Shown here: one piece after another, positions 2,905 to 25,655 of the stretch | Numbering within the stretch: position 1 is the first letter of the stretch | Layout of the letters: each line of letters begins with the position of its first letter | Assembly: GCF_017357105.1 (NCBI RefSeq) | Contig: NZ_CP071596.1 | Span: 2,418,001-2,482,000 of the forward strand | Length of the DNA stretch: 64,000 nucleotides | Reading direction: 5' to 3' | Source: Natronosalvus caseinilyticus | GTDB taxonomy: Archaea > Halobacteriota > Halobacteria > Halobacteriales > Natrialbaceae | Notes under the pieces: generated by a model | What the model saw: the letters and a program-made list of their open reading frames with translations, nothing else | Database searches by the model: none | What the model was told of the DNA's origin: nothing | Program-made: the position numbers and the translations under genes

Positions 2905-4331
2905 AGCTACCACGCCCTGAAGGGCGTGGCATTCAGCGTGGACTCCCGTTCTAACCCGTCAAAGGGGTAGGCGAATACTCGCCGTTCACGTTCATCATCC
3001 CGCTGTTCAAGCGCACGCCTACGGGTGCGCCTCCACGACCAGACTTTTGCTGATTGCGGAGATACTTCAGACCGATATTCTTCGCCGCGTTGTAATCCGC
3101 GTGAACTTCATACCCACACTTCAGACACTCAAACTCGTCCTGACCGTTGTTGTGTGGACGATTATCCTTGTGAGTGAATCCACATGTCGAGCAACGCTGG
3201 CTTGTGTACGCCGGATTAATTTGCTCCACAACAAGCCCCTCGGTTTCGGCTTTGTACGTGATGTACTCGAACAAACGGTGGAACGCCCACTTGTGAACCG
3301 CTTTTGCGTGCGGCAAGCGTTCACGGATGCCTTTCAATTGCTCGAACACGATATGCGTACAATCGGTTTCGAGGGCTTCCTCGATGAGTTCGTTCGCGAT
3401 GGTGTGAAGCATCTGCTCAAAGCGTCGAGTCTGCTTTCGACCGACTCGCTGGACGTTTTCGTGTGCCCAGCGCGTGCCAGTCTGTTGGAGGGTGCCTCGA
3501 CGTTTTTCGTATTCGCGGTGCCAGTGGTTGAGTTCGCCACCGCTCCAAAACGTGCCTGTTGAGGTGGTTGCGATGTTTGTGATGCCAAGGTCAACACCAA
3601 GGACGGAGACGTGCTTGGTATCACCTTTGTCGGCTTCATCGTTCTCCACGACGGGCTTTGTCCGTACATGGAGGTAGAAACAGTCCTTAACCTCATCGTA
3701 GTGGAGCGTGGCCCCTTTCACCTCGTAGTCATCGTTGAACAGGTACGCCGCGTGTGGCGTCTCCCGCTGTTCGTCGGGAAGGACGAACTCTGCGGCCACT
3801 CTCTCATCTATCGTGGCGAGTGTGGCGTGGTCGTCGTTGACGGTGACGGTTCGCGCGTCGTAGCTGGCGAACCGTGACCTGAACTCGGGTTTGGAAGCTT
3901 TCTTGCCTTCCTTCCAGCGCTCGATGACTCCTTTGACGGCTTCTGCGGCGCGGTTTCGTGCGGCTTGCACGAGGTTGGCCGGGAGCGGTGAGTCGTCTCT
4001 TACGTCGTAGTACGTTTGGTCGTGGAGTTTTTGTTTGCTGGTGATTTTCCAGTCTGGTTCCCACGCTACGTCTACGACGTAGTTGGCGGCGTTGAGGAAG
4101 TGGTCGATGGTCTGGTGGAGGAGGTCAGCGGCACTCTCGTCGACGTCGAGTTTGACGGGGACGGTTCGAGTGGCTGAGTCTCCCACCATCTGTACTTCAT
4201 ATGTAAGTACCTGTATTTATAATGATTTGGTTAGCGTTGGAGGAGTCGGCCTGCTATCGAGTGTGGTTTGTGTAATGGGTTGTCGGCTTCTTCCCGCGCC
4301 TAAAGACGCGGGTTTCCGCCTCGCATTCATT
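2905..4331 (-). mobile_element. IS1341-type (IS200/IS605 superfamily) element, tnpB only
   Basis: The element is about 1.43 kb long and carries a single tnpB on the minus strand, with no Y1 tyrosine transposase (tnpA). Subterminal hairpins mark both ends: 2910-2929 (8-bp stem CCACGCCC, loop TGAA) at the tnpB 3' side and 4293-4312 (stem CCCGCGCC with one G-U type mismatch, loop TAAA) at the 5' side. There are no inverted terminal repeats or target duplication, as expected for this family. Boundaries come from restoring the reading frame of the split host gene and are uncertain by one or two bases. Without tnpA, movement would need a Y1 transposase supplied in trans. Confidence 0.8.
2951..4189 (-). 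CDS. tnpB: RNA-guided endonuclease TnpB (IS1341 type)
   Basis: This 412-residue protein has the TnpB layout: an N-terminal helical/OrfB_IS605 region, a RuvC-like nuclease domain and a zinc ribbon. The three RuvC acidic residues are visible in GVDLGITNIATTS, in HIVFEQLKGIRER, and in HADYNAAKNIGLKY. The zinc ribbon shows CSTCGF and CLKCGYE. No frameshift or stop is present, so the nuclease looks intact. TnpB proteins use an omega-RNA made from the 3' end of the gene and the right end of the element to cut empty donor sites, which favours element retention. The gene runs in the same direction as the gene it interrupts. Confidence 0.93.
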   Translation of the reverse strand: MVGDSATRTVPVKLDVDESAADLLHQTIDHFLNAANYVVDVAWEPDWKITSKQKLHDQTYYDVRDDSPLPANLVQAARNRAAEAVKGVIERWKEGKKASKPEFRSRFASYDARTVTVNDDHATLATIDERVAAEFVLPDEQRETPHAAYLFNDDYEVKGATLHYDEVKDCFYLHVRTKPVVENDEADKGDTKHVSVLGVDLGITNIATTSTGTFWSGGELNHWHREYEKRRGTLQQTGTRWAHENVQRVGRKQTRRFEQMLHTIANELIEEALETDCTHIVFEQLKGIRERLPHAKAVHKWAFHRLFEYITYKAETEGLVVEQINPAYTSQRCSTCGFTHKDNRPHNNGQDEFECLKCGYEVHADYNAAKNIGLKYLRNQQKSGRGGAPVGVRLNSGMMNVNGEYSPTPLTG

Positions 4332-8166: not shown

Positions 8167-9114
8167 CTACTGGCGAGACGAGGTCGTCGCGTCGGTGTCG
8201 GTGTACTGTGCGCAGACGCGTTGGAGTCCATCCTCGAAGTCGATTCGGGGTTCCCAGCCGGTCGCCTCACGCATCGACGAGGAATCGGCGCACGTGTCGT
8301 GTACGTACACCGAATCGGGAATCGGGTTTTCGACGTATTCGGGCTCGATATCGGTCCCCAGCTCCTCGTTGAGCATCTCGACAACCGTATTGAAGCTATA
8401 GGCGTCGCCCGTCCCGAGGTTGTAGATCCCGGTAAGCTCGTGGTCAGCGGCGACCTCGAGACCGCGGACGATATCCAAAACGTGGGTGAAATCGCGCGTC
8501 TGCGTGCCATCGCCGTACAAGACGGGTGCCTCCCCGTTCGCGATGTCGTCGGCGAACTGGGCGATCACGTTGGCGTACTCGCCTTTGTGCTCTTCGGCCC
8601 CGCCGTATCCCTGGTAGACCGAGAAGAATCGCATCCCGGCGACGTTCATGTCGTAGTGGTTCGCGAAGTACTCCCCGTAGCGTTCGCGGGCCAGTTTCGA
8701 CGCCTCGTACCCCGTGTTGACGGTGACGGCCATGTCGACGGGCGACGGCTCGGTTCGGCTACCATAGATCGAGGAGGTCGACGCATAGACGACCGTCTCA
8801 CAGCCATCCTGTCGTGCCTGGTCGACGACGTTCACGAACCCCTCGACGTTGACCCGCGCCCCCGTGGTCGGGTCCTCTTCGTGCATCGCGTACGAGGAGA
8901 GCGCCGCGAGGTGGAAGACGACGTCGACATCGGTGGGGAGGTCGTCCTCGAGGACGCTCCGATTGCGGTAGTCGACGTCCTCCCGAAGGTTTTCGGGTGT
9001 GCCGAGATATTCGTCGTCGATCGCGATGACGTCGTTGGTCGCTGCGAGATGATTCGCCAGATTCGAGCCGATAAAGCCGGCCCCGCCGGTTACGAGGATG
9101 CGTTTGCCGTCCAT
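8167..9114 (-). CDS. NAD-dependent sugar-nucleotide epimerase/dehydratase (extended SDR)
   Basis: The 315-residue protein has the Rossmann motif GGAGFIGSNLA at residues 10-20, a conserved acidic residue after strand 2 (IAIDDEYLG), the FHLAALSS strand, and the catalytic YEASK (Tyr-x3-Lys) near residue 140 with STSSIYG before it. These mark extended SDR enzymes such as UDP-glucose 4-epimerase, GDP-mannose dehydratase or AglM-like relatives. The exact sugar cannot be told from motifs. A zinc-ribbon miniprotein and a GT2 gene lie just upstream. A paralogous epimerase is at 29052-29984 in a mirror cassette. Confidence 0.9.
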   Translation of the reverse strand: MDGKRILVTGGAGFIGSNLANHLAATNDVIAIDDEYLGTPENLREDVDYRNRSVLEDDLPTDVDVVFHLAALSSYAMHEEDPTTGARVNVEGFVNVVDQARQDGCETVVYASTSSIYGSRTEPSPVDMAVTVNTGYEASKLARERYGEYFANHYDMNVAGMRFFSVYQGYGGAEEHKGEYANVIAQFADDIANGEAPVLYGDGTQTRDFTHVLDIVRGLEVAADHELTGIYNLGTGDAYSFNTVVEMLNEELGTDIEPEYVENPIPDSVYVHDTCADSSSMREATGWEPRIDFEDGLQRVCAQYTDTDATTSSRQ

Positions 9115-9797: not shown

Positions 9798-11018
9798 ATG
9801 GCAATTCAAGACCAACAATCAGAATCAGATACCGAGTACGGGCAGACGGAACTACAGACACACGAAGCAGACGGCCTGTTGCTCGACGCTGATAGCGAGC
9901 AGACGCCACAGCTCAGCGTCGTGATGCCGACGCTGAACGAAGAGGAGGGCGTCGCCGAGTGTATCGAACGGGCAAAGAACGCGATTGCCGAACTCGGGAT
10001 GCGCGCCGAGATCATCCTCAGTGACAGCTCGACCGATCGGACGCCCGAGATCGGCCGCGAGATGGGCGCCATCATCGTCGAACCAGACGGCAAGGGGTAC
10101 GGCTACGCCTACCGGTACGCGTTCGACCGCGCCCGCGGCGACTACATCGTGATGGGTGACGCCGACACGACGTACGACTTCGAGCAGATTCCACGGCTCC
10201 TCGAGCACCTCCGTGCGGAAAATGGAGATATGGTGATGGGGAGTCGGCTCGAGGGCGAGATCAGGCCGGGGGCGATGCCGCCGCTCCACAAGCACATCGG
10301 CAATCCGGTGTTGACGAAGTTCTTGAACCTGTTTTACGGCGCCGGGGTTAGTGATGCCCATAGCGGCTTCCGGATCTTTACCCGAGAGGCCTACGAGACG
10401 ATGGACCTCGAGACGACCGGGATGGAGTTCGCCAGCGAGATGATCATGGAAGCCGGCGCGAAGGATCTGACGATCGTCGAGACGCCGATCGTCTACCACG
10501 AGCGCGAGGGCGAGGAAACCCTCGAGAGTTTTCGGGATGGGTGGCGACACGTCCGCTTCATGCTCGAGAACGCCCCCGGCTACCTGTTCTCGGTCCCGGG
10601 GGCCGTCATGGGCGTCCTCGGGCTAGTGATCATGGCGCTCGCGGCGACCAGCGCGACGGTCAACGGTGTGAATCCGGGGACGCACTCGATGATCGCGGGG
10701 AGTCTCCTGACGATCGTCGGTTACCAGGTCGCGAGCCTGGGCGTGTTCGCGGCCGTTGCGAGCGATCCGATCCGGAAACCGGAGGATCGGCTCACGAAGC
10801 TTCTGACGGAGTCGCTGACGCTCGAGCGTGGGGCGACACTCGGCGTCGGCGTGTTCGTCCTCGGCGGAAGTTACGCGGGTCTGTTGATTTATCAGTGGAT
10901 CTCGAATGACTTCGGCCCGATCGACTTTACGATAGGGTCGCTCATCGCGTTCACGGCGATCGTGCTCGGGCTGCAGACGGTGTTCTCGTCGTTCTTCTTA
11001 AGTGCAGTGAATCGCTAA
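9798..11018 (+). CDS. Membrane-anchored GT2 glycosyltransferase (dolichyl-phosphate sugar synthase-like)
   Basis: The 406-residue protein has an N-terminal hydrophilic tail, a GT-A domain at about 37-260 and a C-terminal membrane domain. GT-A signatures include LSVVMPTLNEEEGV, SDSSTDRTPEI and the metal-binding MGDADTTYDF. GFRIFTREAYE and EGEETLESFRDGWRH follow. From about residue 265, three or four TM helices end at FFLSAVNR. Such enzymes load dolichyl phosphate with a sugar from a nucleotide donor at the cytoplasmic face. No Shine-Dalgarno is visible before the ATG. It is closely similar to the protein at 30166-31512, and an AglF-like pseudogene follows 38 bp downstream. Confidence 0.88.
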   Translation: MAIQDQQSESDTEYGQTELQTHEADGLLLDADSEQTPQLSVVMPTLNEEEGVAECIERAKNAIAELGMRAEIILSDSSTDRTPEIGREMGAIIVEPDGKGYGYAYRYAFDRARGDYIVMGDADTTYDFEQIPRLLEHLRAENGDMVMGSRLEGEIRPGAMPPLHKHIGNPVLTKFLNLFYGAGVSDAHSGFRIFTREAYETMDLETTGMEFASEMIMEAGAKDLTIVETPIVYHEREGEETLESFRDGWRHVRFMLENAPGYLFSVPGAVMGVLGLVIMALAATSATVNGVNPGTHSMIAGSLLTIVGYQVASLGVFAAVASDPIRKPEDRLTKLLTESLTLERGATLGVGVFVLGGSYAGLLIYQWISNDFGPIDFTIGSLIAFTAIVLGLQTVFSSFFLSAVNR

Positions 11019-11056: not shown

Positions 11057-11798
11057 ATGAAAGCAGTTGTTCTCGCCGCCGGCGAAGGAACGCGACTCCG
11101 ACCACTGACCGAAGACAAACCAAAGGGAATGGTCGAGGTCGATGGGGAACCGATCCTGACGCACTGTTTCGACCAGCTCGTCTCCCTGGGTGCGGACGAA
11201 CTGATTGTCGTCGTCGGCTATCTCAAGGAGAAGATCATCGACCACTACGGCGACGAATACGAGGGCGTCCCGATCACCTACGCCCACCAGCGCGAGCAAA
11301 AGGGGCTGGCCCACGCGTTGCTGACCGTCGAGGAGTACATCGACGACGACTTCATGTTGATCCTCGGCGACAACATCTTCCAGGCGAACCTTGAGGACGT
11401 CGTCCGTCGCCAATGCGAGGATCGGGCGGATGCCGCCTTCTTGGTCGAGGAAGTCCCATGGGACGAGGCCGACCGGTACAGCGTCTGTGATACGAATAAG
11501 TTCGGCGAGATCACGGATGTCGTGGAAAAGGCCGACGACCCACCGTCGAATCTCGTGATGACCGGCTTCTACACCTTTTCCACCGGCAATCTTCCACGTG
11601 TGTCATCTGATGCAGCCGTCTAATAGAGGGGAATACGAGATCAGCGACACGATCGACCTGCTGATTCAGAGCGGGCGGACGATCGATGCGATCGGATTGG
11701 AGGGATGACGGATTGGCGTTGAGTATCCGGAGGATCGAGAAGAAGCGGAAGCGCGGTTGCAGGGAAATGCTGAGACCGCTCTCGCGGAGGATGATTGA
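11057..11798 (+). pseudogene. Broken AglF-like sugar-1-phosphate nucleotidyltransferase
   Basis: The first 174 codons are normal: VVLAAGEGTRLRPLTEDKPK is the nucleotide-binding signature, and LILGDNIF holds the metal-binding Asp. Near 11580 one extra C (TTTTCCACCGG where TTTTCACCGG is expected) shifts the frame, giving a stop at 11621-11623. In the shifted frame the tail continues PAIFHVCHLMQPSNRGEYEI and IDLLIQSGRTIDAIG, then meets TGA at 11706-11708 where the family has Trp (GWRI), and goes on RIGVEYPEDREEAEARLQ to TGA 11796-11798. Two independent lesions make a sequencing artefact unlikely. The intact enzyme would make UDP- or dTDP-sugar for dolichyl-phosphate charging. Confidence 0.85.
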
Positions 11799-11859: not shown

Positions 11860-13161
11860 TTAGAGATACCCGAGAGCTTCCAAGTGTTCCGCTTGCTCCT
11901 CAGAGAATTCTTCTGACTCTTCATTTTCAACCAAGTCATCAGCTAGTTCTTGATCTGCAACATCTTGAGAAATGTTTGGGTTACCGAAGGAACTCCATCG
12001 CCGACCCCAGTACTGGAATCCAGAAATGATATCGCGAATTCCCGCAGTCTTCCGTGCAGGTGGGGCATAATCCCCGAGAAATACGTCATAACCATAGTAG
12101 GCCATCCGAAGCAGGTTTGATCGCCGGTGTTTCACCCATCCTCCTTCGTTATCCCATAGACTTGATGCGACATACACTGGCCAAGTCCGGTCTAAAGCAT
12201 CGTATCGTTGCCAAACGTCAGATCGAACGAAGCGATCTTCGTTCGGGGTTTCGGTCCAGAGGTCGATGCCGTCGACATTTCCTGTTGGACGGCCGACTGC
12301 AGAGAGACAGGTTGGTGCGAGATCGACACCAGAAACGAGGCCGTTGAGTTTCTCTCCCTCTGGAAGGCCCGCACCGATGAAGGTCATTGGAACTTCAAGC
12401 AACTCGGGGCATAATGGGGTTGAATGACCCCACTTCCCCCCGAGCCGACCACCCTCGCCAAGGAGTTCCCCGTGGTCGGAGGTAAAGACGCAGAGTGTGT
12501 CCTCGAGTGATCCTTCAGAATCAAGTTCGTCGAGAACGCGCTCGAAATAACGAGCAGATTTCTCAGTGTCTTCGTGGTAGCGTCGCTTCAATTCCTCGGG
12601 ATCCGAATAATCCTCGAAAAAGGATTCTGTGTCGTACTCGTCGTTCTCAAATCCGTACGGTGCATGGGGACCGAGGTCATGTATTACGTGAACGAATGGA
12701 GGCTCAAGTTCGGATAGCCGCTGTTCGCCATTAAGCCGAAGCATCTTGATAGGGGGCTTCTCGGCCGAATCAAACTTGAGCCAGTGCTTCTCAGAGTTGA
12801 ACCCTGCAGTCCAATCATCGGGTTCCGACAGTAAGATGGGACGATCGGAGAGGCGATCTTCAAACATCCAGACGTTGTGCGTCGACGGATATTTACCCGT
12901 CACGAGCGATGGTATCGACGACGCCGTCCAAGGAGCAGCGGCAATCGTCTTCCCGGTCACGCCCTTCGATCGAATTCGGTCGGGAAGTGCATCGTATCGG
13001 AGCGAATCGGAGATGAAGACGAGTACGTTCTCGTACTCCGGTACATCAGTCAACTCACCCAAGGCCCTCGAGATCATTACCCTTTTCTTAGTTGGTGAAA
13101 TGAAAAATCTGGCGGATAGGTACTGTCGACTCCTGCTGTTCTCGGTGAAATAGTAATCCAA
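11860..13161 (-). CDS. Alkaline-phosphatase-superfamily (sulfatase-like) protein
   Basis: The 433-residue product (or about 405 if the ATG at 13075-13077, MISRALGEL, is used) has the superfamily metal site: FISDSLRYD near the start, TSDHGELLGEG and WGHSTPL. The nucleophile segment is APWTASSIPSLVTGKYP. The Cys of the sulfatase C-x-P-S-R motif is absent and Thr stands in its place, as in phosphotransferases such as LtaS. It may therefore transfer or hydrolyse a phosphoryl group on glycan or lipid rather than cleave sulfate; this is inference. No signal peptide is seen. It ends EEQAEHLEALGYL, a tail form common in archaeal sulfatase-like proteins. Confidence 0.82.
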   Translation of the reverse strand: MDYYFTENSRSRQYLSARFFISPTKKRVMISRALGELTDVPEYENVLVFISDSLRYDALPDRIRSKGVTGKTIAAAPWTASSIPSLVTGKYPSTHNVWMFEDRLSDRPILLSEPDDWTAGFNSEKHWLKFDSAEKPPIKMLRLNGEQRLSELEPPFVHVIHDLGPHAPYGFENDEYDTESFFEDYSDPEELKRRYHEDTEKSARYFERVLDELDSEGSLEDTLCVFTSDHGELLGEGGRLGGKWGHSTPLCPELLEVPMTFIGAGLPEGEKLNGLVSGVDLAPTCLSAVGRPTGNVDGIDLWTETPNEDRFVRSDVWQRYDALDRTWPVYVASSLWDNEGGWVKHRRSNLLRMAYYGYDVFLGDYAPPARKTAGIRDIISGFQYWGRRWSSFGNPNISQDVADQELADDLVENEESEEFSEEQAEHLEALGYL

Positions 13162-13255
13162 TACACAGGTGTTTTAATCTCTGTCTTCCTTCATAAGAGA
13201 CAATGGAAATAGACTACGAACGAGCGCCGGTTCAAGCATCACTAAATCAGCACTA

Positions 13256-14398
13256 ATGCATGTACTATACATCATGGGACAGGATAGCGGCGGCCTCCCA
13301 CACTATACAGCAGAGCTAGCGAATGCTGTTTCACAACACGCCGATGTCACCGTCTTGAAAGCAACCGAAACATCCGCAGAGGGGCTTTTCGATCCGGCCG
13401 TCGAGGTAATCGAGGCGTTCGAATCAACCGACATCTCGATGCAGAACATCTTCGAACTAAACCTCAATGTCCGGAAGAACCTCACAGGACTATACTCGTT
13501 CAAAAACCTGAGGTTGGTTAACGATCTCGATCCAGACATCGTTCACGACCCGACTGATGAGTTCCCGCAGGTTTCGCTCTTTGCATACCTCCACGGGATC
13601 TACAAAGACCGGCCCTACGTCATTACATCTCACGAGGTCGAACACGGTGGATCCGGTGACATACTGAAACTCGCGGACATCGTCGGATCCGCGATTCCCG
13701 ATTTCCCGAAGGCGGCGGCTGTCGTCCACTCTGAAAAGCAGCGGGAAGCACTGCTCGAACAGGACCGGAACATCGAGTCGGTACACGTGATCCCCCACGG
13801 CGTCTATACGTTCTTCTCCGAGTTTGACCATCTCGAACCACCCGAAGAACTCAATCACGCCCTGTTCTTCGGGAGTCTGATTCCACCCAAAGGACTCGAG
13901 TTTCTCGTTCGGGCACTCCCCGCGATTGTTGAGGAGATCCCGGACTTTTCGGTCACAATCGCGGGAAAAGGGAACATCCCGAACCCAGATGGCCTGTTAG
14001 ACGAGTATACTGATCATGTAACGATCCGCAATGAATTCATTCCGAATGAAGAGGTCGGGGAACTGTTCTCCCGAGCCAAGGTAGTCGTCCTTCCATACCG
14101 CGATGGCTGGCAGACCGGCCACAGCGGGACGCTCTCGACCGCGTTCGCGTTTGGGAAACCAGTCGTCACGACTGACGTAGGAGACTTCCAGCAGATGGTC
14201 GGTGACGCAGGAGCAGGCGTCGTGGTAGAACCCGAAAGCGCCGATACACTGGCAGAGGGCGTTATCCGCGTACTAAGTAATGAATCACAGCGACGAGAGA
14301 TGGCGGAAGCAAGCGCTGAGATAGCGGAGGAACTCTCTTGGGAAAATATTGGCGAGAAGCACATCGAGATGTACCGCGAGATCTTCAAGCGAAGTTAG
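13256..14398 (+). CDS. GT4-family glycosyltransferase
   Basis: The 380-residue GT-B enzyme opens with [20 protein letters not shown], a glycine-rich acceptor-side loop. The donor-binding half includes [28 protein letters not shown] and [20 protein letters not shown], then [17 protein letters not shown]. The Glu-x7-Glu motif is degenerate because the second part reads [12 protein letters not shown]. It is cytosolic and should extend a lipid-linked glycan. It diverges from the sulfatase-like gene at 11860-13161 and overlaps the convergent gene at 14395 by 4 bp. Confidence 0.87.
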
Positions 14399-15852
14399 AC
14401 GTAGCCGAGGTCCTCGAGGCTACCGATGACTTCGTCGTCGAGACTGTAATTTTCTGGGTCGCCTTCAGGCCATACCCCGTACTCTTCGGGAAGCACCTCA
14501 AAAAGTTTGTCTCTGAGTTCCGACTCTATCGTGGCCTCAGAAACCTCAGTCTCGATATCGCCGGACACATTGTAGAGCGTCGAGTTACCCAAAGAATCCA
14601 CGACAAGTTTGTGAGTCTCCGTTCGGACTGCCTTCCGGCCGGCGGCGAATTGGCGGAGCTGTTCATCGTCCATATAGCGGCCATGTGCGGATTCCCGGAA
14701 CTCACGAACCCTCCGTTTCCCGTGCTCCATAAAGACCGCGTTCCGGCTGTCCTTGTCGAACAGTGGGACGCCGTCCGTAAAATCCGGCACTTCGATGTCG
14801 GCGAGGCTGGAGAGAGTGGGAAAAAGGTCCACTAGTGATGCTAAGCCCTCCGGAGCCTCGTTGACGCCAGGCCCGGTCATCAAGAGGGGAACTTGGAGTG
14901 TTTCGTCGAATAAGTAATGACTATGAGCCATGAGTCCGTGTTCGCCTAGTTGTTCGCCGTGGTCGGCGGTTACGACGAGAAGCGTATCGTCGGCGAGGTT
15001 AGATTGGTAGTAGTCGAGGAACCTACCGAACTCATCGTCGAGATATTTTATCGATGCACGATACCACCGTTTGAGCGCCTCTAATTCGTCTTCGTTTAGG
15101 TACGACGAATCCGCCAGATATCGCCCAATTCCATCTCCGGTCTGGACATGGTCAACGCGGTCCAGTCGGACGTTCGGATTCTCATGATCCCCAAGCTGAT
15201 TGAACAAGAATTCGAGGAGGAACAACGGGGGTTCGGAGAACGCCGGGTCAAACTCGCTTCGGTAGCCCCGCGGCGGATGGTATGGCGCATGAGCTTCCAA
15301 GATGTTGGCGAACGCGAAGAAAGGTTCTGAAGTTGATGATATCCAGTCTTTCAGGTAATCGAACTTGAACCGCGTATTCTTGATCTCACCGCGGAACGCT
15401 GTCCGAATCCCGTCGTTGAAAATGTGCCAGTCAGAGAGGACGTTCTTGAAATACGCTTTTGTTGGCTTTCTGTTCCGGTACCCGATGTCGTAGTATGGTT
15501 CAAAGTACTCGTTGAACCCCCGATCATAGCCGAAGTCGGAGGCGATCTTCGATGGGCCGGCGATGCCCATCGTCTCGTACCCGTGTTTGCTGAACCACTC
15601 AGGCATCGTTGGATGGTCTTTCGGAAGGTTGAGGTATTGACCTGTGACGCCGCTGTGGGAAGGGTATCGACCGGTGAAGACACCACCATGTGAGATAGGA
15701 GTCCCAGGACCAACAGTATACGCATTACTGAAAGTAGTGCCCTGTGAGTCAATACTATCGATATTCTTGGTATTTACTCCAGAATTATCGTTGATAGAGA
15801 TATAATCAGCGCGGAGAGTATCAAACACCAGTAAGATCACGTTCTTTCTCAT
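14395..15852 (-). CDS. Alkaline-phosphatase-superfamily (sulfatase-like) protein
   Basis: The 485-residue protein starts [20 protein letters not shown], whose Asp is the first metal ligand of the fold. The nucleophile region reads [19 protein letters not shown]: Thr occupies the place of the sulfatase Cys and the following Arg is lost. [19 protein letters not shown] supplies the other metal ligands. It ends [12 protein letters not shown]. No signal peptide or TM is visible, so it may act in the cytoplasm on lipid-linked glycan. Specificity is unknown; phosphotransfer or phosphodiester hydrolysis fits better than sulfate hydrolysis. It converges with the GT4 gene (4-bp overlap). Confidence 0.85.
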
Positions 15853-15946
15853 TATGCAGTTATCATTGAACGTCAGGCAAATGTCTTACCATATTTGACT
15901 GAGCCATGAGTGTCCTTGCAGGTTAATCTCCGAGGATTTATTTATA

Positions 15947-17368
15947 TTGTTTGGAAAAGGATATATGATGGATCTGGAACGAGCTGGTATAGTCACTATT
16001 ATTTCACGATTCCTTTCTACTGGAATTGGGTTTGTAGGTACAATATACTATGCACAAGAATTAGGGTCAACTGCTCTGGGAAGTTTCTTCCTCCTACAAT
16101 CTCTAGTCGGGTTTTTGTCAATTCCAGCAGACGTAGGCGTTCAGGGTGCTATTGAAAAACGCCTCAGTGAAGGAGAGAATAAGCACAGATATTTTTCAGC
16201 AGGCCTTATATTATTGTCAGTTTCATATGTGATAGTTGCATTAGCTATAATACCATTTTCGAAATCAATCAATGATTATCTGGGCATGCCTCTATTCCTT
16301 GAATTGTTGGCGGTCCTATTTATCACCATTGTGTATCAATTATTTCTATCATCGTTAAGAGGCGAATTAAAAATAGTTCATAGTGCTCTTTTAGAAGCGG
16401 TCCAGGCACTTTCAACCCTATTAATTTCTATAATACTTCTAATAGATGGTTACGGAGTATATGCGCTAGTCTATGGTCTGTTAGCAGGGAAAATGCTAAG
16501 TTCGGTATTGGCGATATATTTGCTTGATCTATCAATTGTTGTGCCGACCACCACCAGTTTCAGAAGAATTTGGGATTTTTCAAAATACAACACAATTCTT
16601 CGATCTAGCGGGTTGATCTACGGTTGGGCAGACACACTCATCATTGGTATATTCCTTAGCAGTTCTCTGGTGGCGATTTATGAGGTTGCTTGGCGTCTAT
16701 CGATCGTCAGCATTGTCGTGAGCGGCGCACTTTCCACCGTGATCTTCCCTAACTTCAGCAACCTATATTCAGATAGTGAAATTGAGGAGATATCCACAGT
16801 TACATCAAGGGCATTAACATACGTAATGATAATACCAGTGGGGGTTTTTTTTGGATCCCTTATTCTCTCGAAAGAAGTATTGGGTGTCATTTACGGCGCA
16901 GAATTCAGTGCGGGATGGTTGGTCCTCATATTACTGACCGGTGAGCGGTTGATCCACGCATTCCATGAGATCATATACAAAATCACATTAGCACTGGACC
17001 AGCCAGACATTGCTTTTCGTTATTCTCTCTTATCTATATTGATGAATGTAATACTGAATATCATGCTTGTCCCAATTATCGGGATCGAAGGGGCCGCTAT
17101 CGCGATGATAACAGCCTATGCTGTTAATGCACTGTTATATTATCGACATATCAAAAATCAAATTCCATTACAGATTCCATTCAAAAATATATGGTGGATT
17201 TTGATCTCCGGTGGTATTATGGCACTCACAGTGCATTATCTGTCCCACATAATCCAGATCGACTCAATAGTAAAATTATCGGCCATAATTTTAATCGGGG
17301 GTCTTGTCTATTTCCTATCAATATTATTGAATAGTTCTATTCGAAGTATGTGGGTGGAACTCAGCTAA
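15947..17368 (+). CDS. Polysaccharide/oligosaccharide flippase (Wzx/AglR-like)
   Basis: The 473-residue protein is almost wholly hydrophobic, with 12 or more TM helices, and carries typical flippase features: ERAGIVTIISRFLSTGIGFV at the start, FFLLQSLVGFLSIPADVGVQ, and RALTYVMIIPVGVFFGSLIL. It should move lipid-linked glycans across the membrane. In-frame ATGs at 15965 and 15968 (MMDLERAG) are equally plausible starts, since the extra residues are few. This is the first gene of the A+T-rich block; many ATA, TTA and AAT codons contrast with the G+C-rich neighbours. It converges with the WcaK-type gene (8-bp overlap). Confidence 0.88.
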   Translation: MFGKGYMMDLERAGIVTIISRFLSTGIGFVGTIYYAQELGSTALGSFFLLQSLVGFLSIPADVGVQGAIEKRLSEGENKHRYFSAGLILLSVSYVIVALAIIPFSKSINDYLGMPLFLELLAVLFITIVYQLFLSSLRGELKIVHSALLEAVQALSTLLISIILLIDGYGVYALVYGLLAGKMLSSVLAIYLLDLSIVVPTTTSFRRIWDFSKYNTILRSSGLIYGWADTLIIGIFLSSSLVAIYEVAWRLSIVSIVVSGALSTVIFPNFSNLYSDSEIEEISTVTSRALTYVMIIPVGVFFGSLILSKEVLGVIYGAEFSAGWLVLILLTGERLIHAFHEIIYKITLALDQPDIAFRYSLLSILMNVILNIMLVPIIGIEGAAIAMITAYAVNALLYYRHIKNQIPLQIPFKNIWWILISGGIMALTVHYLSHIIQIDSIVKLSAIILIGGLVYFLSILLNSSIRSMWVELS

Positions 17369-18665
17369 TCATCGAAGACGCAATTTCGGCGTTTCTACGT
17401 GTTAATGACTTCAGATGATCAATCCCTCTACTCATTTTCATCTGGTACGTTCTATCCTCAATCACATTTTGAGTGAGAACTTGAAGGTCACGGGAGTTGA
17501 CTTGGCTAATATCTATAAATAGCTCCTTGAGTCCGAGACGTTCCATTAAATCTTTGGATTTCGGGAGGTATGGAATGCTAATTGTGGGCGTGTCCATTTC
17601 CATAGAAAATATCGTAGAATGCATTCGGGTTCCAACAAACAACTCGACCTCACCGGTGAGATATTTCAGTTGTCTTGGAGGTATATTCGAGTCTAGGATA
17701 TGGATCTCTGAGGTATTGTCGCAGCTATTGGTAATCAGTTCGGCTTCTTCAACATCAGATGGAGTGTGATTGAAAAAGAAAAGTGTCGCACTCAGTTCTT
17801 CCTGGAGATAATCAGCGTACTTGGACATTTCCTTTCGATACTGCTTCTTCATTTTCTTCGGGTTATCTGAATTCGGATACTTCCAATCTCGGACAGTCAG
17901 ACCTATTGGCACCTCTGATTCCCTTATGGTTCTGAGTATTCCGTTGTTTTCCGGCGGGGTCGGCTCAAGTAAAAACGCGGCATCAGCGGTCACTTCTCGA
18001 GGAGGGTCCGTTACACCTATTTCCTCCAGATAATTTTCGGAGATGTTGTCACGGACTGTTATATAGTCCACTTCGTTAAGAACAGAGCAGGCCAGGGATC
18101 CATAGTGTTTTTTTCTAAATGGTCCTATAGATTGGGCATATATCATTACAGGGGTATCGATAAGTGTTGCCATTTTTAATGTATAGAGATGCTTCAGAAA
18201 TGCTGGTCCATGGCTGTCATGGAGGAATCCCCCACCACAACTGAGTACCAAATCTGATTTTTTCATCCGATCAAACAATTCTTGTTCTTGATCTCGTAGC
18301 AAATATTCTTGGCCCAGTGGAGAACTTAAATTGTATTTGATAGAATATAGAAGCGGAATTTTTCTTATGGCCTCATATATCGCAAGGGGAGAAATACCAA
18401 TATAGGGGGCACTAATTCCATATCTCCAGAGTGTAGTGAAAACATCTGCATTATAAAAGTCTTGATCCTGATCTGGATGCCAACTTTCAATATTCACCGA
18501 AATAGCGCCGATACGCTTCTCCAATATGTCAATCATACTTAATACAATTGCGGCATCGCCTTTATTTCTATTCCCAAATACATTTATTATTGTTATTTCA
18601 GTTACTTCTGATTTAGGAATATTATTCTTAGAACTTGGATTGTAGTTTATGTTTTTATGTCTCAT
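17361..18665 (-). CDS. Polysaccharide pyruvyl transferase family protein (WcaK/CsaB type)
   Basis: The 434-residue protein has INVFGNRNKGDAAIVLSMI (N-x-GD motif), LVLSCGGGFLHDSHGPAF, MIYAQSIGPF, ITVRDNISENYL and, near the C-terminus, FVGTRMHSTIFSM, the conserved G-x-R-x-H. These are the signatures of the WcaK/CsaB family, which adds ketal pyruvate from phosphoenolpyruvate to a glycan; some members do other chemistry. Its start overlaps the stop of the upstream gene by 4 bp (ATGA, 18662-18665), implying translational coupling. A+T-rich codon use suggests a foreign origin. Confidence 0.87.
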   Translation of the reverse strand: MRHKNINYNPSSKNNIPKSEVTEITIINVFGNRNKGDAAIVLSMIDILEKRIGAISVNIESWHPDQDQDFYNADVFTTLWRYGISAPYIGISPLAIYEAIRKIPLLYSIKYNLSSPLGQEYLLRDQEQELFDRMKKSDLVLSCGGGFLHDSHGPAFLKHLYTLKMATLIDTPVMIYAQSIGPFRKKHYGSLACSVLNEVDYITVRDNISENYLEEIGVTDPPREVTADAAFLLEPTPPENNGILRTIRESEVPIGLTVRDWKYPNSDNPKKMKKQYRKEMSKYADYLQEELSATLFFFNHTPSDVEEAELITNSCDNTSEIHILDSNIPPRQLKYLTGEVELFVGTRMHSTIFSMEMDTPTISIPYLPKSKDLMERLGLKELFIDISQVNSRDLQVLTQNVIEDRTYQMKMSRGIDHLKSLTRRNAEIASSMIS

Positions 18666-19555
18666 GCTTTATACCCGAGAGCCCTCAGATTCTGTTCAAT
18701 CAGTTCCTGGTCTATATTTGAAGTGGTTTCGGGCTCTTCCACAATAATGTCTCGCCGCCCATCAAAATCAACCGTGAACCACGGTACTTTCACAAGTTCT
18801 TCCCGATATACGCCACCGAAATGGCCAAAAAACCTGAAGGGCCCAATCCTCTCTCCGAGCATCTCTCCATGATCTGATGTAATGATTGTTTTTCCATCAA
18901 TTTCACTAATCAAGTTTTTAGCTTCATCTAATACGAACTCTAAATTCTCTCTATAAGCCATTCTGACATCATCAATGCTTACGCCACTTCGGTTAATAGT
19001 CTCTCTCAAATCACCTCCGAAGTCGAATTGTTCTCGACCATATGGTCCAAGGTAGGGTTGGTGAGGCTGGAGATAGTGGACAATTAGCCGTTTATTCGGA
19101 TATTCTTGATGGGCCTTAATCGCTTCTTGAGTTACTGTCTTGGGGTTTGTTGTAATCCCGTACTCGTCTCTCCACTCCTCAGTGTATAATTGAATATGCT
19201 TGTAGACTTCTGAGCCAATCTCATTGCGGAGCTGTCCGTAGAATCCATTAGCAGAGATATATACAACGTCATGTAACTGCTTGTTTGAAAAATTTCCTCG
19301 CATAAACTCAGTACTGGTAGAACCCCGAGAAGTGACTATTTCGAGATCCCCGGGCATATCTATTGCTTCGTTGAAATAATCATATCTGCAAGCATCAAGT
19401 ATGATCAGTGTATCCCAGTCTCGTTTCATTACATCATCGCCATCTGGATTATATTTCATACCACTTTTATAATGGTTGAGCTTACCAATTGATTGGGTAT
19501 ATGCTCGCTGTGGTCTTGATAACGCTCGTTTGAACGTGGCTAATGATTTCATCAT
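18662..19555 (-). CDS. Alkaline-phosphatase-superfamily protein, short form
   Basis: The 297-residue protein has TLIILDACRYDYFNEA at about residue 50, the first metal Asp of the fold. The nucleophile zone is SRGSTSTEFMRGNFS with Ser/Thr and no Cys. ITSDHGEMLGERIGPFRFFG and HFGGVYREEL carry the other metal ligands. It is shorter than sulfatases because the C-terminal subdomain is missing. It ends EQNLRALGYKA. It is coupled to the pyruvyl transferase gene by ATGA overlap, so both probably modify the same glycan. Substrate unknown; phosphoryl transfer or hydrolysis is the best guess. Confidence 0.82.
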   Translation of the reverse strand: MMKSLATFKRALSRPQRAYTQSIGKLNHYKSGMKYNPDGDDVMKRDWDTLIILDACRYDYFNEAIDMPGDLEIVTSRGSTSTEFMRGNFSNKQLHDVVYISANGFYGQLRNEIGSEVYKHIQLYTEEWRDEYGITTNPKTVTQEAIKAHQEYPNKRLIVHYLQPHQPYLGPYGREQFDFGGDLRETINRSGVSIDDVRMAYRENLEFVLDEAKNLISEIDGKTIITSDHGEMLGERIGPFRFFGHFGGVYREELVKVPWFTVDFDGRRDIIVEEPETTSNIDQELIEQNLRALGYKA

Positions 19556-19599
19556 TGCCGGTTTTATTGTAGTGACATATATATTCGCCGGCCTGAGCG

Positions 19600-20513
19600 T
19601 GGCCGTTTTTCCCTCTGGTGATCGGACTCAAGAGATCCCCGTCAATCTCATCAACGTCGATAAGTTCACTATCAGTGGCCTCACAATCCGTTGATCTGAT
19701 GTATGGAGTATCGTACCAGAGAATGTCCCAATGGGCGTATCTCTAGCATCCACTTCGAATCCTGAGCAGGGAGGCGGATCTGGTGGCGGCTGTTCCATAT
19801 CACGTTCACGAACGTTGCAATGGACCACATCTATCAGGGCACACTCCTCCGAATTGCTCCCGGCCCTGATAACAAGACAGATGGAGTTACACTCTCCAAT
19901 TCAACGTTTTACGTGCTGAAGGACGACCAAGATTGTGTGCGTCTTGGTAGTGACGACTCATACCCCCGGAACATCTCGTTAACACTGCGCTATAGAACAT
20001 CCAGACCAATAATCGGGGGATCTACCTGCGCGACCCCACGAAAGACATTCAGGTCAGCAACTTCCACGTGAAGGATACTGATGTTTTCCTCGATAACAAC
20101 GGTTACGACATCATCAATGCCCAGTTCTCTAATTGCAGTGTTGAACGAAATGCAGATGGATTCTACCTGTTCATTCTCGGAGGGTCAACCCTTGATAATG
20201 CCTAATTCAACAATATTTGGGTTGTCGGTAACGACGGGGGCGTAGCGTTCAACCTCGACAGTATTGGCACTCTCGAATGTCACTTTCACCGATATTCACA
20301 TCGATTCGGCTAACAAAGGGTTCCGGATGACCACGGATGCAACCCTGAATGGTGACCTGCGATTCCGTAATGTGACCGAAGAAGGTGGCGTTCAACACTA
20401 TGATACTGCCGACAACCAGATTACTGTCAACGGCCACAAAAAGGTCTCCTTAGCAGGCGACACACCAGATACGACGAACTACTACCGAGTCAATGTGGCG
20501 GAATATTGTTAAA
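19600..20513 (+). pseudogene. Degraded beta-helix surface protein
   Basis: The + strand holds beta-helix-like pieces in changing frames: INVDKFTISGLTIR to a stop at 19693, then TNVAMDHIYQGTLLRIAPGP and VTLSNSTFYVLKDDQDCVRL, then NNRGIYLRDPTKDIQVSNFH and VERNADGFYLFILGGS to TAA at 20203, then VTFTDIHIDSANKGFRM in another frame ending YYRVNVAEYC at 20510-20512. At least two frameshifts and two stops are needed to join them. The repeat style (N/D-rich V-x-F-x-x-I) resembles parallel beta-helix or pectate-lyase-like proteins. Nothing intact remains. It is flanked by A+T-rich glycan genes. Confidence 0.72.
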
Positions 20514-20571
20514 TAATATAGACACACGGTAATCGAAACATTTAGGATACATATCCATCATCTCACGACCA

Positions 20572-23121: not shown

Positions 23122-23330
23122 CTGGAGACTGGTGTTCGAGGCCTATATTATGTATTCAAAACTACGACGTGCCGTCCTGTCCGGGTAGGATCATATCTCA
23201 ACGCTTACAGAAATTTTATTATATGTACATATTTACGCAAATAACTGCCCACAGTCTCTACACAGTAATAACGGAACTCCGGAAAACTTACGTGCTTTTA
23301 TATGTCATCTACGTATGGGTGATCAAACCA

Positions 23331-24527
23331 ATGCATGTTTGTCTCATATCTAGCCTTTTCCCACCTGAGATGCTCGGCGGTGCAGAAAAGAATGTAAGGC
23401 TAATTTCCAAAGAATTGGTAGAACGAGGTCATCAGGTCTCCGTCATCACAACGACAGGTTCTGCAGATCCTGGACCCCTGTCCTATAATTCAGATCAGAA
23501 AGATGGCATTGAAGTCTTCCGTTATAGGCCAAGGAATGTATTTCAACCAGTGGATATTCCTGATCAACCGACATGGAAATTCATTCCTTTTAAAATTATT
23601 GATACGTGGAATCCTCACTCCTATATCATCCTGAAGAAAATAATCCAGAAGATTTCACCGGATCTCATCCACCTTCACAACTATGAGGGACACTCAGGTG
23701 CTGTGTTTACGGCTGCTGGGAGCTATTCGGCCCCTCTTGTCCACACCCTTCATGACTACTCGTTGCTGCATTTCCAACCCAGTATGTACAGAAACGGAGA
23801 AGTGTGGGAGCCGGGTTCCTATTTTAAACCATATCATGAAATCAATAAGCAGCTAATAAAGCAGGTTGATAAGTATATCTCTCCATCTGATTTTCTAATA
23901 CAGAAACACAAAGAGTACGGGTTTTTCCAGAGTGGAGATTGCGAAGTAATTCAAAACGGGGTACCATTAAATGATAAACCCCAAATCGAAAAGCAGCCAC
24001 CGACAAAGGAGGGAAAAATTCGTCTTCTTTATGTAGGACGGGTATCCTCAGATAAAGGAGTTGATACACTGATAGAGGCTGTACAGTTGAATTCAGAGAA
24101 AGCCATACAACTGGATATCCTCGGAAAAGGAGCTGAACGAGAGGAACTGGAGAAATTAGCTACCGATTCCAATATTAAGTTTCATGGATTCGTGTCTGAA
24201 GAGGAGTTGATTTCGTACTATCGCAATGCCCATGCCACTGTTGTTCCTTCTGAATGGTACGATAATTCGCCTACAGTAATCTATGAAAGCATATCAATGG
24301 GGACACCCGTGATAGCAGCAGAAATAGGTGGGATACCTGAACTACTAACAGAAGAAACAGGATTCCTCTTTCGTTCAAGTGACGCTAGGAATCTATCGGA
24401 CACGATTAATGAGGCATACAAGAGTATCACGGTGAAGAGTTATGAAGAGTGCATAGATAGAAGGGATCATTTTAATATCAAAAGACATGTTAATGAGTTG
24501 CTTGACGTATATCGAGATTTAGCTTAA
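23331..24527 (+). CDS. GT4-family glycosyltransferase
   Basis: I start this gene at the ATG at 23331 (MHVCLISSLFPPEMLGGAEK), where the GT4 fold begins; the open frame extends 54 codons further upstream but with an atypical hydrophobic sequence. The 398-residue GT-B enzyme shows GGAEKNVRLISKELVERGH, DLIHLHNYEGHSGAV, LLYVGRVSSDKGVDTLIEAV and SEWYDNSPTVIYESISMGTP, the Glu-x7-Glu motif. It should transfer a sugar from a nucleotide donor to the growing lipid-linked glycan. Codon use is A+T-rich. It converges with the next GT4 gene and overlaps it by 9 bp. Confidence 0.88.
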   Translation: MHVCLISSLFPPEMLGGAEKNVRLISKELVERGHQVSVITTTGSADPGPLSYNSDQKDGIEVFRYRPRNVFQPVDIPDQPTWKFIPFKIIDTWNPHSYIILKKIIQKISPDLIHLHNYEGHSGAVFTAAGSYSAPLVHTLHDYSLLHFQPSMYRNGEVWEPGSYFKPYHEINKQLIKQVDKYISPSDFLIQKHKEYGFFQSGDCEVIQNGVPLNDKPQIEKQPPTKEGKIRLLYVGRVSSDKGVDTLIEAVQLNSEKAIQLDILGKGAEREELEKLATDSNIKFHGFVSEEELISYYRNAHATVVPSEWYDNSPTVIYESISMGTPVIAAEIGGIPELLTEETGFLFRSSDARNLSDTINEAYKSITVKSYEECIDRRDHFNIKRHVNELLDVYRDLA

Positions 24528-25655
24528 TCTCAATAACTCGATGATCTCGGATGCGAACTTATCTTTTGAGCCAAGATCGACTAACCGACCATTGGTCTGA
24601 ACCTCGGAGTGGGCACCAATATCATAAGCTACCGTGGGTGTACCACACGCTTCAGCTTCAGCAATAGTGAGATTGAAACCCTCTTTTTCAGAACAGGTAG
24701 CGTAAACATCGGTAGCGGCATAGTAGTGCGGGAGTTCAGACTCGGGGACCATTCCTGTAAAGATTATTTGCCCATCTGACTCCTTTTTCTGTTTGACTAG
24801 GTATTCTGTATAATCGCTCTCATCCTTCCGACCGACGAGGAGTAATACAGCGTCAGGATAGGTATTCAGAATCCGTTCGTACACATCGATCAGTTCGTGA
24901 ACCCTTTTGGAGCGCGCGAGACGGCCGACGTACAAAATTACCGGCTTATTATCGAGACCAAATTTATCCCTTATCGGGGAGCCCGAAACTTCCTCGTGGT
25001 AGAACTCTTCATCGATAAGATTGTAGATTACGGGGCCGGTTTTGCCAAACTTTGCCTTGTATTCGTCTCTGCTGTACTTGCTAACTGAGACCACGCTATC
25101 TAATTTGGTACTTGAGTATAGGATCCCACGATATACCGTATACCCAAAAAGCTTCTCGATTAGTCCAACTTTCTCATTAGGTTCAGTGATATGGTGGTTA
25201 TAGTATATGGTAGTCGTCCCGTACTGGTATTTCGTAAGAACTGCAACTGGACAGAGTACCGGCTGGTGAACGACAAGTAGATCAAACGAACTGAGGCGGC
25301 GTGCCATCCGGAGCATGCTTAGTGGATTGAACAGATATCTAGGGCGAACAGCAATATCATTGAGGAGGGTGCCGTTCCCTATTTCTTCAACCCTGAACCC
25401 ATCCGGTTCTATTTCGGCTTCGAATGTGAACGCAGTAGGAGTATATCCTGCATCCCGCAAGGTGCGCAACTGTCGGATTGCGACGTGGCCGGCACCTTCC
25501 GATTCGTCTAAACGAGAAACGAGAATACCGATCGATTCTATCCGGCCCGGTATATTTTCGATTAATTCTGTGATGTTATGCAGGATATCTTGTTCAAAGT
25601 TGAGTGACACGCTTTGAGTGTTCTTTCCTACAAGATGGCTTAAGATTGTCGTCAT
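24519..25655 (-). CDS. GT4-family glycosyltransferase
   Basis: The 378-residue protein has a GT-B layout with an N-terminal extension of about 40 residues. Motifs include IGILVSRLDESEGAGHVAIR, VILYVGRLARSKRVHELIDV and CSEKEGFNLTIAEAEACGTP, the donor-binding Glu-x7-Glu, followed by TVAYDIGAHSEV. It should act in the cytoplasm on lipid-linked glycan. It is the last gene of the A+T-rich block, which ends near 25.7 kb. It converges with the GT4 gene to the left. Confidence 0.87.
   Translation of the reverse strand: MTTILSHLVGKNTQSVSLNFEQDILHNITELIENIPGRIESIGILVSRLDESEGAGHVAIRQLRTLRDAGYTPTAFTFEAEIEPDGFRVEEIGNGTLLNDIAVRPRYLFNPLSMLRMARRLSSFDLLVVHQPVLCPVAVLTKYQYGTTTIYYNHHITEPNEKVGLIEKLFGYTVYRGILYSSTKLDSVVSVSKYSRDEYKAKFGKTGPVIYNLIDEEFYHEEVSGSPIRDKFGLDNKPVILYVGRLARSKRVHELIDVYERILNTYPDAVLLLVGRKDESDYTEYLVKQKKESDGQIIFTGMVPESELPHYYAATDVYATCSEKEGFNLTIAEAEACGTPTVAYDIGAHSEVQTNGRLVDLGSKDKFASEIIELLRLS

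What the first reader, a model, noticed from the sequence alone, without database searches (positions are those of the whole stretch)
11860..19555. Three phosphatase-superfamily enzymes with no sulfatase Cys, embedded in a glycan cluster
The proteins at 11860-13161, 14395-15852 and 18662-19555 keep the metal site (an N-terminal D, and DHGE) but show no cysteine at the sulfatase nucleophile: [20 protein letters not shown] and RGSTSTEF hold Thr or Ser. Phosphotransferases such as LtaS use Thr there. Together with a WcaK-type pyruvyl transferase and GT4s, this suggests a phosphorylated or phosphodiester-linked archaeal surface glycan, not a sulfated one. None has a signal peptide or TM helix, which argues against simple LtaS-like action outside.
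Basis: partly seen in the sequence, partly recalled or inferred. Interest (0 to 1): 0.6.

Follow-up and report, generated by a model that had tools for sequence, protein, structure and literature searches.

The report
Sulfatase-fold enzymes decorating archaeal surface sugars
Three neighbouring genes of a salt-loving archaeon encode sulfatase-shaped enzymes whose usual catalytic cysteine is replaced by threonine or serine; the nearest relative studied by experiment adds sulfate, not phosphate, to surface sugars, so these probably build such sugars rather than break them down.

Summary
The ORFs at 11860-13161 (P1), 14395-15852 (P2) and 18662-19555 (P3) are alkaline-phosphatase-superfamily proteins with Thr, Thr and Ser at the nucleophile and no CxPxR sulfatase motif. 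In P3 the nucleophile is S81, not the Thr on either side: column 81 is S/T in 54 of 54 relatives, while column 80 varies. No signal peptide or TM helix was found.

The inference "phosphorylated, not sulfated" is not supported. Published primers for Halobacterium salinarum VNG1056C (Agl30) and VNG1063H translate to peptides that fit P3's own family. Agl30 is an aglB-cluster protein required for sulfation of the N-glycan iduronic acid (PMC11980604). So a Ser/Thr nucleophile does not distinguish phosphate from sulfate transfer.

I favour cytosolic Agl30/Agl31-type glycan sulfotransferases, working as "locked" sulfatases whose sulfo-Ser/Thr is discharged onto a sugar. That step and the sulfate donor are inferred. 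Phosphotransfer remains a live rival: P3's best structural matches are phosphoethanolamine transferases, and sulfatases score almost as high.

A side finding: among 92 PF00884-type proteins a C-terminal LxxLGY tail goes with Thr/Ser (73/82) and never with Cys (0/10). New members of a recently described kind.

The parts
11860..13161 (-). P1: PF00884-type alkaline-phosphatase-superfamily protein (405 aa from the ATG at 13077); nucleophile T51, codon 12925-12927; metal-site residues D24, D201, H202, H218; C-term LEALGYL
14395..15852 (-). P2: PF00884-type alkaline-phosphatase-superfamily protein (485 aa); nucleophile T51, codon 15700-15702; metal-site residues D11, D297, H298, H310; C-term LEDLGYV
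18662..19555 (-). P3: short (297 aa) Agl30-family alkaline-phosphatase-superfamily protein; nucleophile S81, codon 19313-19315; metal-site residues D54, D228, H229, H245; invariant H160 and H165; C-term LRALGYKA
17361..18665 (-). Polysaccharide pyruvyl transferase (PF04230), start codon overlaps the stop of P3 (ATGA)
15947..17368 (+). Wzx/MOP-type flippase (PF13440/PF01943)
13256..14398 (+). GT4 glycosyltransferase
23169..24527 (+). GT4 glycosyltransferase
24519..25655 (-). GT4 glycosyltransferase
9798..11018 (+). AglJ/dolichyl-phosphate-hexose-transferase-like GT2
8167..9114 (-). NAD-dependent sugar epimerase/dehydratase

Best explanation
P1, P2 and P3 are intracellular alkaline-phosphatase-superfamily transferases of the kind represented by Hbt. 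salinarum Agl30 (P3's own family) and Agl31 (the PF00884 type, like P1 and P2). They put acidic groups, most likely sulfate esters, on sugars of a lipid-linked surface glycan before the flippase exports it. Proposed mechanism: a metal held by Asp and Asp-His activates the Thr/Ser; this residue takes a sulfonyl group from a donor; because the residue is not a formylglycine hydrate, the sulfo-enzyme cannot be released by the usual sulfatase elimination and is discharged onto a sugar hydroxyl. Such a sulfatase is locked into transfer. SHOWN here: fold class, nucleophile identity, conservation, homology of P3 to Agl30, cluster context. SHOWN by others: Agl30 and Agl31 are required for sulfation. 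INFERRED: that the window proteins transfer sulfate, the covalent mechanism, the acceptor sugars and the donor.
For: PMC11980604: knockouts of VNG1056C and VNG1057C lose most sulfation, and each adds a sulfate-assigned mass in Hfx. volcanii. Published primers translate to DFGHLDM, ITDRTV and C-term HLEDLGYL (VNG1056C), and VHYFQPH and KELGYI (VNG1063H). These fit P3-family proteins in aglB-anchored clusters: L191 DFGQLDM, ITDRTV, HLRDLGYM; L175 DFGHLDL, HLQDLGYL. The TM segment reported for VNG1056C (residues 21-39) fits the same subclade. P3 matches these by blastp at 28-30% over about 300 aa, E 1e-28 to 1e-31. Their nucleophile column is Ser (GSHS, GSTS in P3). LGY tail with Thr/Ser versus none with Cys: 73/82 vs 0/10. 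No FGE in the genome and no PF13469 sulfotransferase. The location of Agl30/31 and the sulfation of lipid-linked glycan in Hbt. salinarum fit the absence of signal peptides here.
Against: No activity, glycan or mutant data exist for this organism. VNG1063H, also of P3's family, showed no role in N-glycan sulfation. P3 lacks the TM helix of Agl30. The P3 model scores phosphoethanolamine transferases first. No ATP sulfurylase (PF01747) was found in this genome or in Hbt. salinarum, and the APS-kinase hits here look like FtsY and a different kinase, so the donor is unaccounted for. Sulfate and phosphate differ by only 9.5 mDa, so the Hfx. volcanii mass shift alone does not prove sulfate (the Hbt. 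salinarum sulfates are independently established, including by NMR).
Confidence: 0.58

Rival explanations
1. They are phosphotransferases: the Thr/Ser takes a phospho-alcohol from a nucleotide- or lipid-linked donor and makes a phosphodiester on the glycan, like EptA/MCR-1 or LtaS but on the cytosolic side.
For: P3 model: EptA Z 16.4, EptC 16.1, MCR-1 15.5; Foldseek ranks 1-10 are phosphoethanolamine transferases. The Thr nucleophile is the one those enzymes use.
Against: Sulfatases and phosphonate monoester hydrolase score within about 1 Z, i.e. tied. P1 and P2 are closer by sequence to S1 sulfatases and phosphonate monoester hydrolases than to LtaS. The experimentally studied Agl30 family acts in sulfation. 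The first metal ligand is Asp as in sulfatases, where LtaS/EptA have Glu (own knowledge). No TM domain.
Confidence: 0.24
2. They are hydrolases (phosphatases or phosphodiesterases) that trim or recycle phosphorylated sugars or lipid-linked intermediates during glycan assembly.
For: Same fold as phosphonate monoester hydrolase and type I phosphodiesterases (PF01663 also hits P1 and P2); a Thr nucleophile supports hydrolysis in nucleotide pyrophosphatases (own knowledge).
Against: Three co-clustered copies, aglB-linked relatives and the knockout phenotypes of relatives point to group transfer.
Confidence: 0.12
3. True sulfatases matured through a Ser-type or undetected formylglycine route.
For: Three Cys-type sulfatase-like proteins exist elsewhere in the same genome.
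Against: Thr is not a known formylglycine precursor (own knowledge); 0 of 82 Thr/Ser-type proteins carry [CS]xPxR; no FGE in the genome.
Confidence: 0.03

Closest known systems
Agl30 (VNG1056C) of Halobacterium salinarum, iduronic-acid O-sulfotransferase (PMC11980604)
   Same: Same family as P3 (short alkaline-phosphatase-superfamily protein, HYxQPH, DHG and LGY-tail motifs), glycan gene cluster, Ser in the nucleophile column of its subclade
   Different: Agl30 has an N-terminal TM helix and an aglB-anchored cluster; P3 has no TM helix, is ~28-30% identical to Agl30-like proteins, and its cluster has a pyruvyl transferase and several GT4s; acceptor unknown
Agl31 (VNG1057C) of Halobacterium salinarum, terminal GlcA sulfotransferase
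   Same: Soluble arylsulfatase-type protein in a glycan cluster, C-term LEELGYT (from primer); P1 and P2 are the same general type
   Different: Full sequence not available here, so orthology of P1/P2 is untested
EptA/EptC/MCR-1 phosphoethanolamine transferases
   Same: Fold of the P3 core, Thr/Ser nucleophile, Asp-His metal site
   Different: They have TM domains and act outside the membrane; the window proteins have neither
S1 sulfatases and phosphonate monoester hydrolases
   Same: P1 and P2 match them over the core (E down to 1e-22 and 1e-55)
   Different: No CxPxR motif; Thr in place of the formylglycine-forming Cys; LGY tail
LtaS lipoteichoic acid synthase
   Same: Superfamily, Thr nucleophile
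   Different: LtaS is membrane-anchored and extracytoplasmic; it ranks behind sulfatases for P1

Membership tests
Agl30 family (short alkaline-phosphatase-superfamily glycan sulfotransferases) | Full-length homology to Agl30-type proteins of aglB-anchored clusters (P3) | tested here: met
   blastp E 1e-28 to 1e-31 over ~300 aa; primer-derived VNG1056C and VNG1063H peptides fit the family
Agl30 family (short alkaline-phosphatase-superfamily glycan sulfotransferases) | N-terminal transmembrane helix (reported for VNG1056C only) | tested here: not met
   P3 maximum KD19 0.43; not a feature of the whole family, as P3 itself and one L185 member start without one
Agl30 family (short alkaline-phosphatase-superfamily glycan sulfotransferases) | Required for sulfation of a glycan | not testable with these tools
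   needs a knockout and glycan mass spectrometry
Agl31 (VNG1057C) | Orthology of P1 or P2 to VNG1057C | tested here: inconclusive
   VNG1057C full sequence not held; only start, end and two short primer peptides
S1 sulfatases (formylglycine-dependent) | [CS]xPxR nucleophile motif | tested here: not met
   Thr/Thr/Ser without the motif
S1 sulfatases (formylglycine-dependent) | Formylglycine-generating enzyme in the genome | tested here: not met
   no PF03781 match; anaerobic radical-SAM maturase not searched
Alkaline phosphatase superfamily | Asp / nucleophile / Asp-His metal site on the superfamily fold | tested here: met
   conserved columns and predicted folds
LtaS / phosphoethanolamine transferases | TM domain and extracytoplasmic catalytic domain | tested here: not met
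   no TM or signal peptide
LtaS / phosphoethanolamine transferases | Catalytic fold similarity | tested here: met
   P3: Z 16.4 EptA, 15.5 MCR-1, tied with sulfatases at ~15

The most novel reading that the evidence does not exclude
A widespread archaeal class of 'locked sulfatases': alkaline-phosphatase-fold proteins with a C-terminal LGY tail in which Thr/Ser replaces the formylglycine Cys, turning the sulfatase scaffold into a covalent, ping-pong glycan sulfotransferase that may not depend on the canonical PAPS enzymes.
Probability: 0.3. Interest if true: 0.72.

Novelty: new member of a known kind. Interest (0 to 1): 0.45.

Why it matters
Sulfatase-like proteins without the catalytic Cys are abundant in haloarchaeal glycan clusters (P3's family in 346 of 391 genomes) and may be read as sulfatases or, from the Thr/Ser, as phosphotransferases. 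The link to Agl30 suggests that at least some of them build sulfated glycans. It raises a testable question: how an alkaline-phosphatase fold performs sulfonyl transfer, and from which donor. The tail and nucleophile signature could help separate builders from breakers in annotation.

Tried and rejected
Nucleophile at T80 or T82 of P3: rejected, those columns vary. Contig 17 of Hbt. salinarum DSM 3754 (L018/L052) as the NRC-1 VNG1056C/1057C/1063H locus: I assumed this at first and dropped it. The contig lacks the AglF and AglQ genes, DSM 3754 (strain 91-R6) carries replacement islands rich in glycosyltransferases, and the primer-derived ends differ. Labels Agl30/Agl31/VNG1063H in the outputs refer to those DSM 3754 paralogues. 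A second DSM 3754 P3-like gene lies beside an ACT-domain gene, outside any glycan cluster. Pyruvyl transferase as a conserved partner: no match in the 21 sampled stretches. P3 profile versus P2 profile aligned only the C-terminal half, so the P3 nucleophile rests on conservation and its position in the model. The P1 model is weak (mean pLDDT 62, residues 284-391 unreliable), so only its core was used. Model coordinates could not be read out, so active-site geometry was not superposed. Viral-contig neighbours of P3-like genes gave sugar-nucleotide, glycosyltransferase and methyltransferase genes; the only sulfur-related family among the 25 shown was PF01507 (2 members), which is common in phages and not specific.
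Full report
WHAT IS THERE. The window lies at 2.418-2.482 Mb of a 4.24 Mb haloarchaeal genome. The three ORFs exist as described and belong to the alkaline phosphatase superfamily: P1 and P2 pass the PF00884 cut-off, P3 does not (18.2 bits against 25). They sit among GT4 and GT2 glycosyltransferases, a Wzx-type flippase, a polysaccharide pyruvyl transferase and sugar epimerases. P3 and the pyruvyl transferase overlap by ATGA and are probably co-translated.

THE NUCLEOPHILE. I collected relatives from about 300-400 haloarchaeal genomes and from viral contigs. The aligned column is Thr/Ser throughout: P1 T51 (25 T, 2 S of 27), P2 T51 (22 T, 4 S of 26), P3 S81 (34 T, 20 S of 54). For P1 and P2 the Thr aligns with the residue that stands in for the catalytic Cys in mutated solved sulfatases, and the two Thr align with each other. 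In the predicted structures S81 and P1 T51 are each the first residue of a helix following a strand, where superfamily nucleophiles sit (own knowledge). None carries the [CS]xPxR formylglycine motif, and the genome has no FGE.

FOLD. The P3 model (mean pLDDT 79.6, core above 90) matches phosphoethanolamine transferases best: EptA Z 16.4, EptC 16.1, MCR-1 15.5. An ulvan sulfatase (15.3) and a phosphonate monoester hydrolase (15.2) lie within about 1 Z and are therefore tied. The weaker P1 model finds sulfatases first. Fold alone does not separate phosphate from sulfate chemistry.

THE DECISIVE PRECEDENT. In Hbt. salinarum the aglB cluster holds three alkaline-phosphatase-like genes. Deleting VNG1056C or VNG1057C greatly reduces disulfated N-glycan (about 250- and over 50-fold less than the unsulfated form, where the parent has about 10-fold more), the double mutant loses nearly all sulfation, and expressing either gene in Hfx. 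volcanii yields a glycan assigned as sulfated. They were named Agl30 and Agl31; VNG1063H had no detected role (PMC11980604). Agl30 is membrane-associated with a TM segment predicted at residues 21-39; Agl31 is soluble. I could not fetch the NRC-1 genes, so I translated the published primers. VNG1056C gives DFGHLDM, ITDRTV and C-terminal HLEDLGYL; VNG1063H gives VHYFQPH and KELGYI. These fit P3-family proteins in aglB-anchored clusters of other haloarchaea, whose gene order (AglM-like, AglF-like, flippase, two P3-family proteins, a PF00884 protein, GTs, AglB) resembles the Hbt. salinarum cluster. P3 is 28-30% identical to those proteins over its length (E 1e-28 to 1e-31), and their nucleophile column is Ser. 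So P3 shares a family with an enzyme required for glycan sulfation. P1 and P2 share only the general PF00884 type with Agl31.

HOW IT MAY WORK. Sulfatases need a formylglycine hydrate so that the sulfo-enzyme can be released; replacing it traps the sulfated enzyme (Recksiek et al. 1998, title seen in a reference list; content from own knowledge). A sulfatase scaffold with a natural Thr or Ser would therefore hold its sulfo group until an acceptor hydroxyl takes it, acting as a transferase. That fits the conserved Thr/Ser, the knockout data of relatives, the intracellular location (no TM or signal) and the sulfation of dolichol-linked glycan reported for Hbt. salinarum. The donor is open: no ATP sulfurylase PF01747 in either genome, no convincing APS kinase here, no PF13469 sulfotransferase here; CysN/CysD routes were not tested.

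A SIGNATURE. All three proteins end in LxxLGY. Among 92 PF00884-type proteins in the fetched loci whose nucleophile could be aligned, the tail occurs in 73 of 82 with Thr/Ser and 0 of 10 with Cys, and [CS]xPxR in 0 of 82 and 9 of 10 (Fisher p 1.3e-8). The set was gathered by similarity and its members are related, so the p-value overstates the evidence.

CONTEXT ELSEWHERE. P3's family occurs in 346 of 391 haloarchaeal genomes, often as several copies. Of the 20 neighbourhoods fetched, most hold further superfamily genes and glycosyltransferases, and seven include AglB. P3-like genes on viral contigs sit beside sugar-nucleotide enzymes, glycosyltransferases and methyltransferases.

VERDICT. Observation confirmed and sharpened; interpretation half right. 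The proteins are better described as Agl30/Agl31-type glycan-modifying transferases, with sulfate more likely than phosphate. New members of a kind described in 2025, with an unsolved mechanism.

Noticed in passing
window 11057-11790 (+): Glucose-1-phosphate nucleotidyltransferase gene appears broken: the 188-aa frame stops at 11623 and the rest of the protein (NRGEYEISDTIDLLIQSGRTIDAIGLEG) continues in another frame; related full-length proteins are about 242-246 aa.
   Followed up: partly
window 19556-20540: About 1 kb between P3 and the DUF2206 protein with no listed ORF of 120 aa or more; it reads like decayed coding sequence (Asn-rich repeats as in beta-helix proteins).
   Followed up: no
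L001, L002, L005 (own genome): Three PF00884 proteins of this genome keep the Cys at the nucleophile, yet no FGE (PF03781) was found, so their maturation is unexplained.
   Followed up: partly
P1, P2, P3 and 73 of 82 Thr/Ser PF00884-type proteins in the fetched loci: Shared C-terminal LxxLGY tail, absent from all 10 Cys-type proteins; role unknown.
   Followed up: partly
L099-L119 (IMG/VR contigs): Short P3-like alkaline-phosphatase-superfamily genes lie on contigs classed as viral, beside nucleotide-sugar, glycosyltransferase and methyltransferase genes; some neighbours match Caudovirus prohead proteases.
   Followed up: partly
L018/L052, Hbt. salinarum DSM 3754 contig 17: The type strain carries another glycan cluster with three superfamily genes, its P3-like protein 74-76% identical to aglB-linked genes of other haloarchaea.
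   Followed up: partly
window 2951-4189 (-): IS605-type OrfB/TnpB-like protein (PF07282, PF01385) at the edge of the glycan cluster.
   Followed up: no
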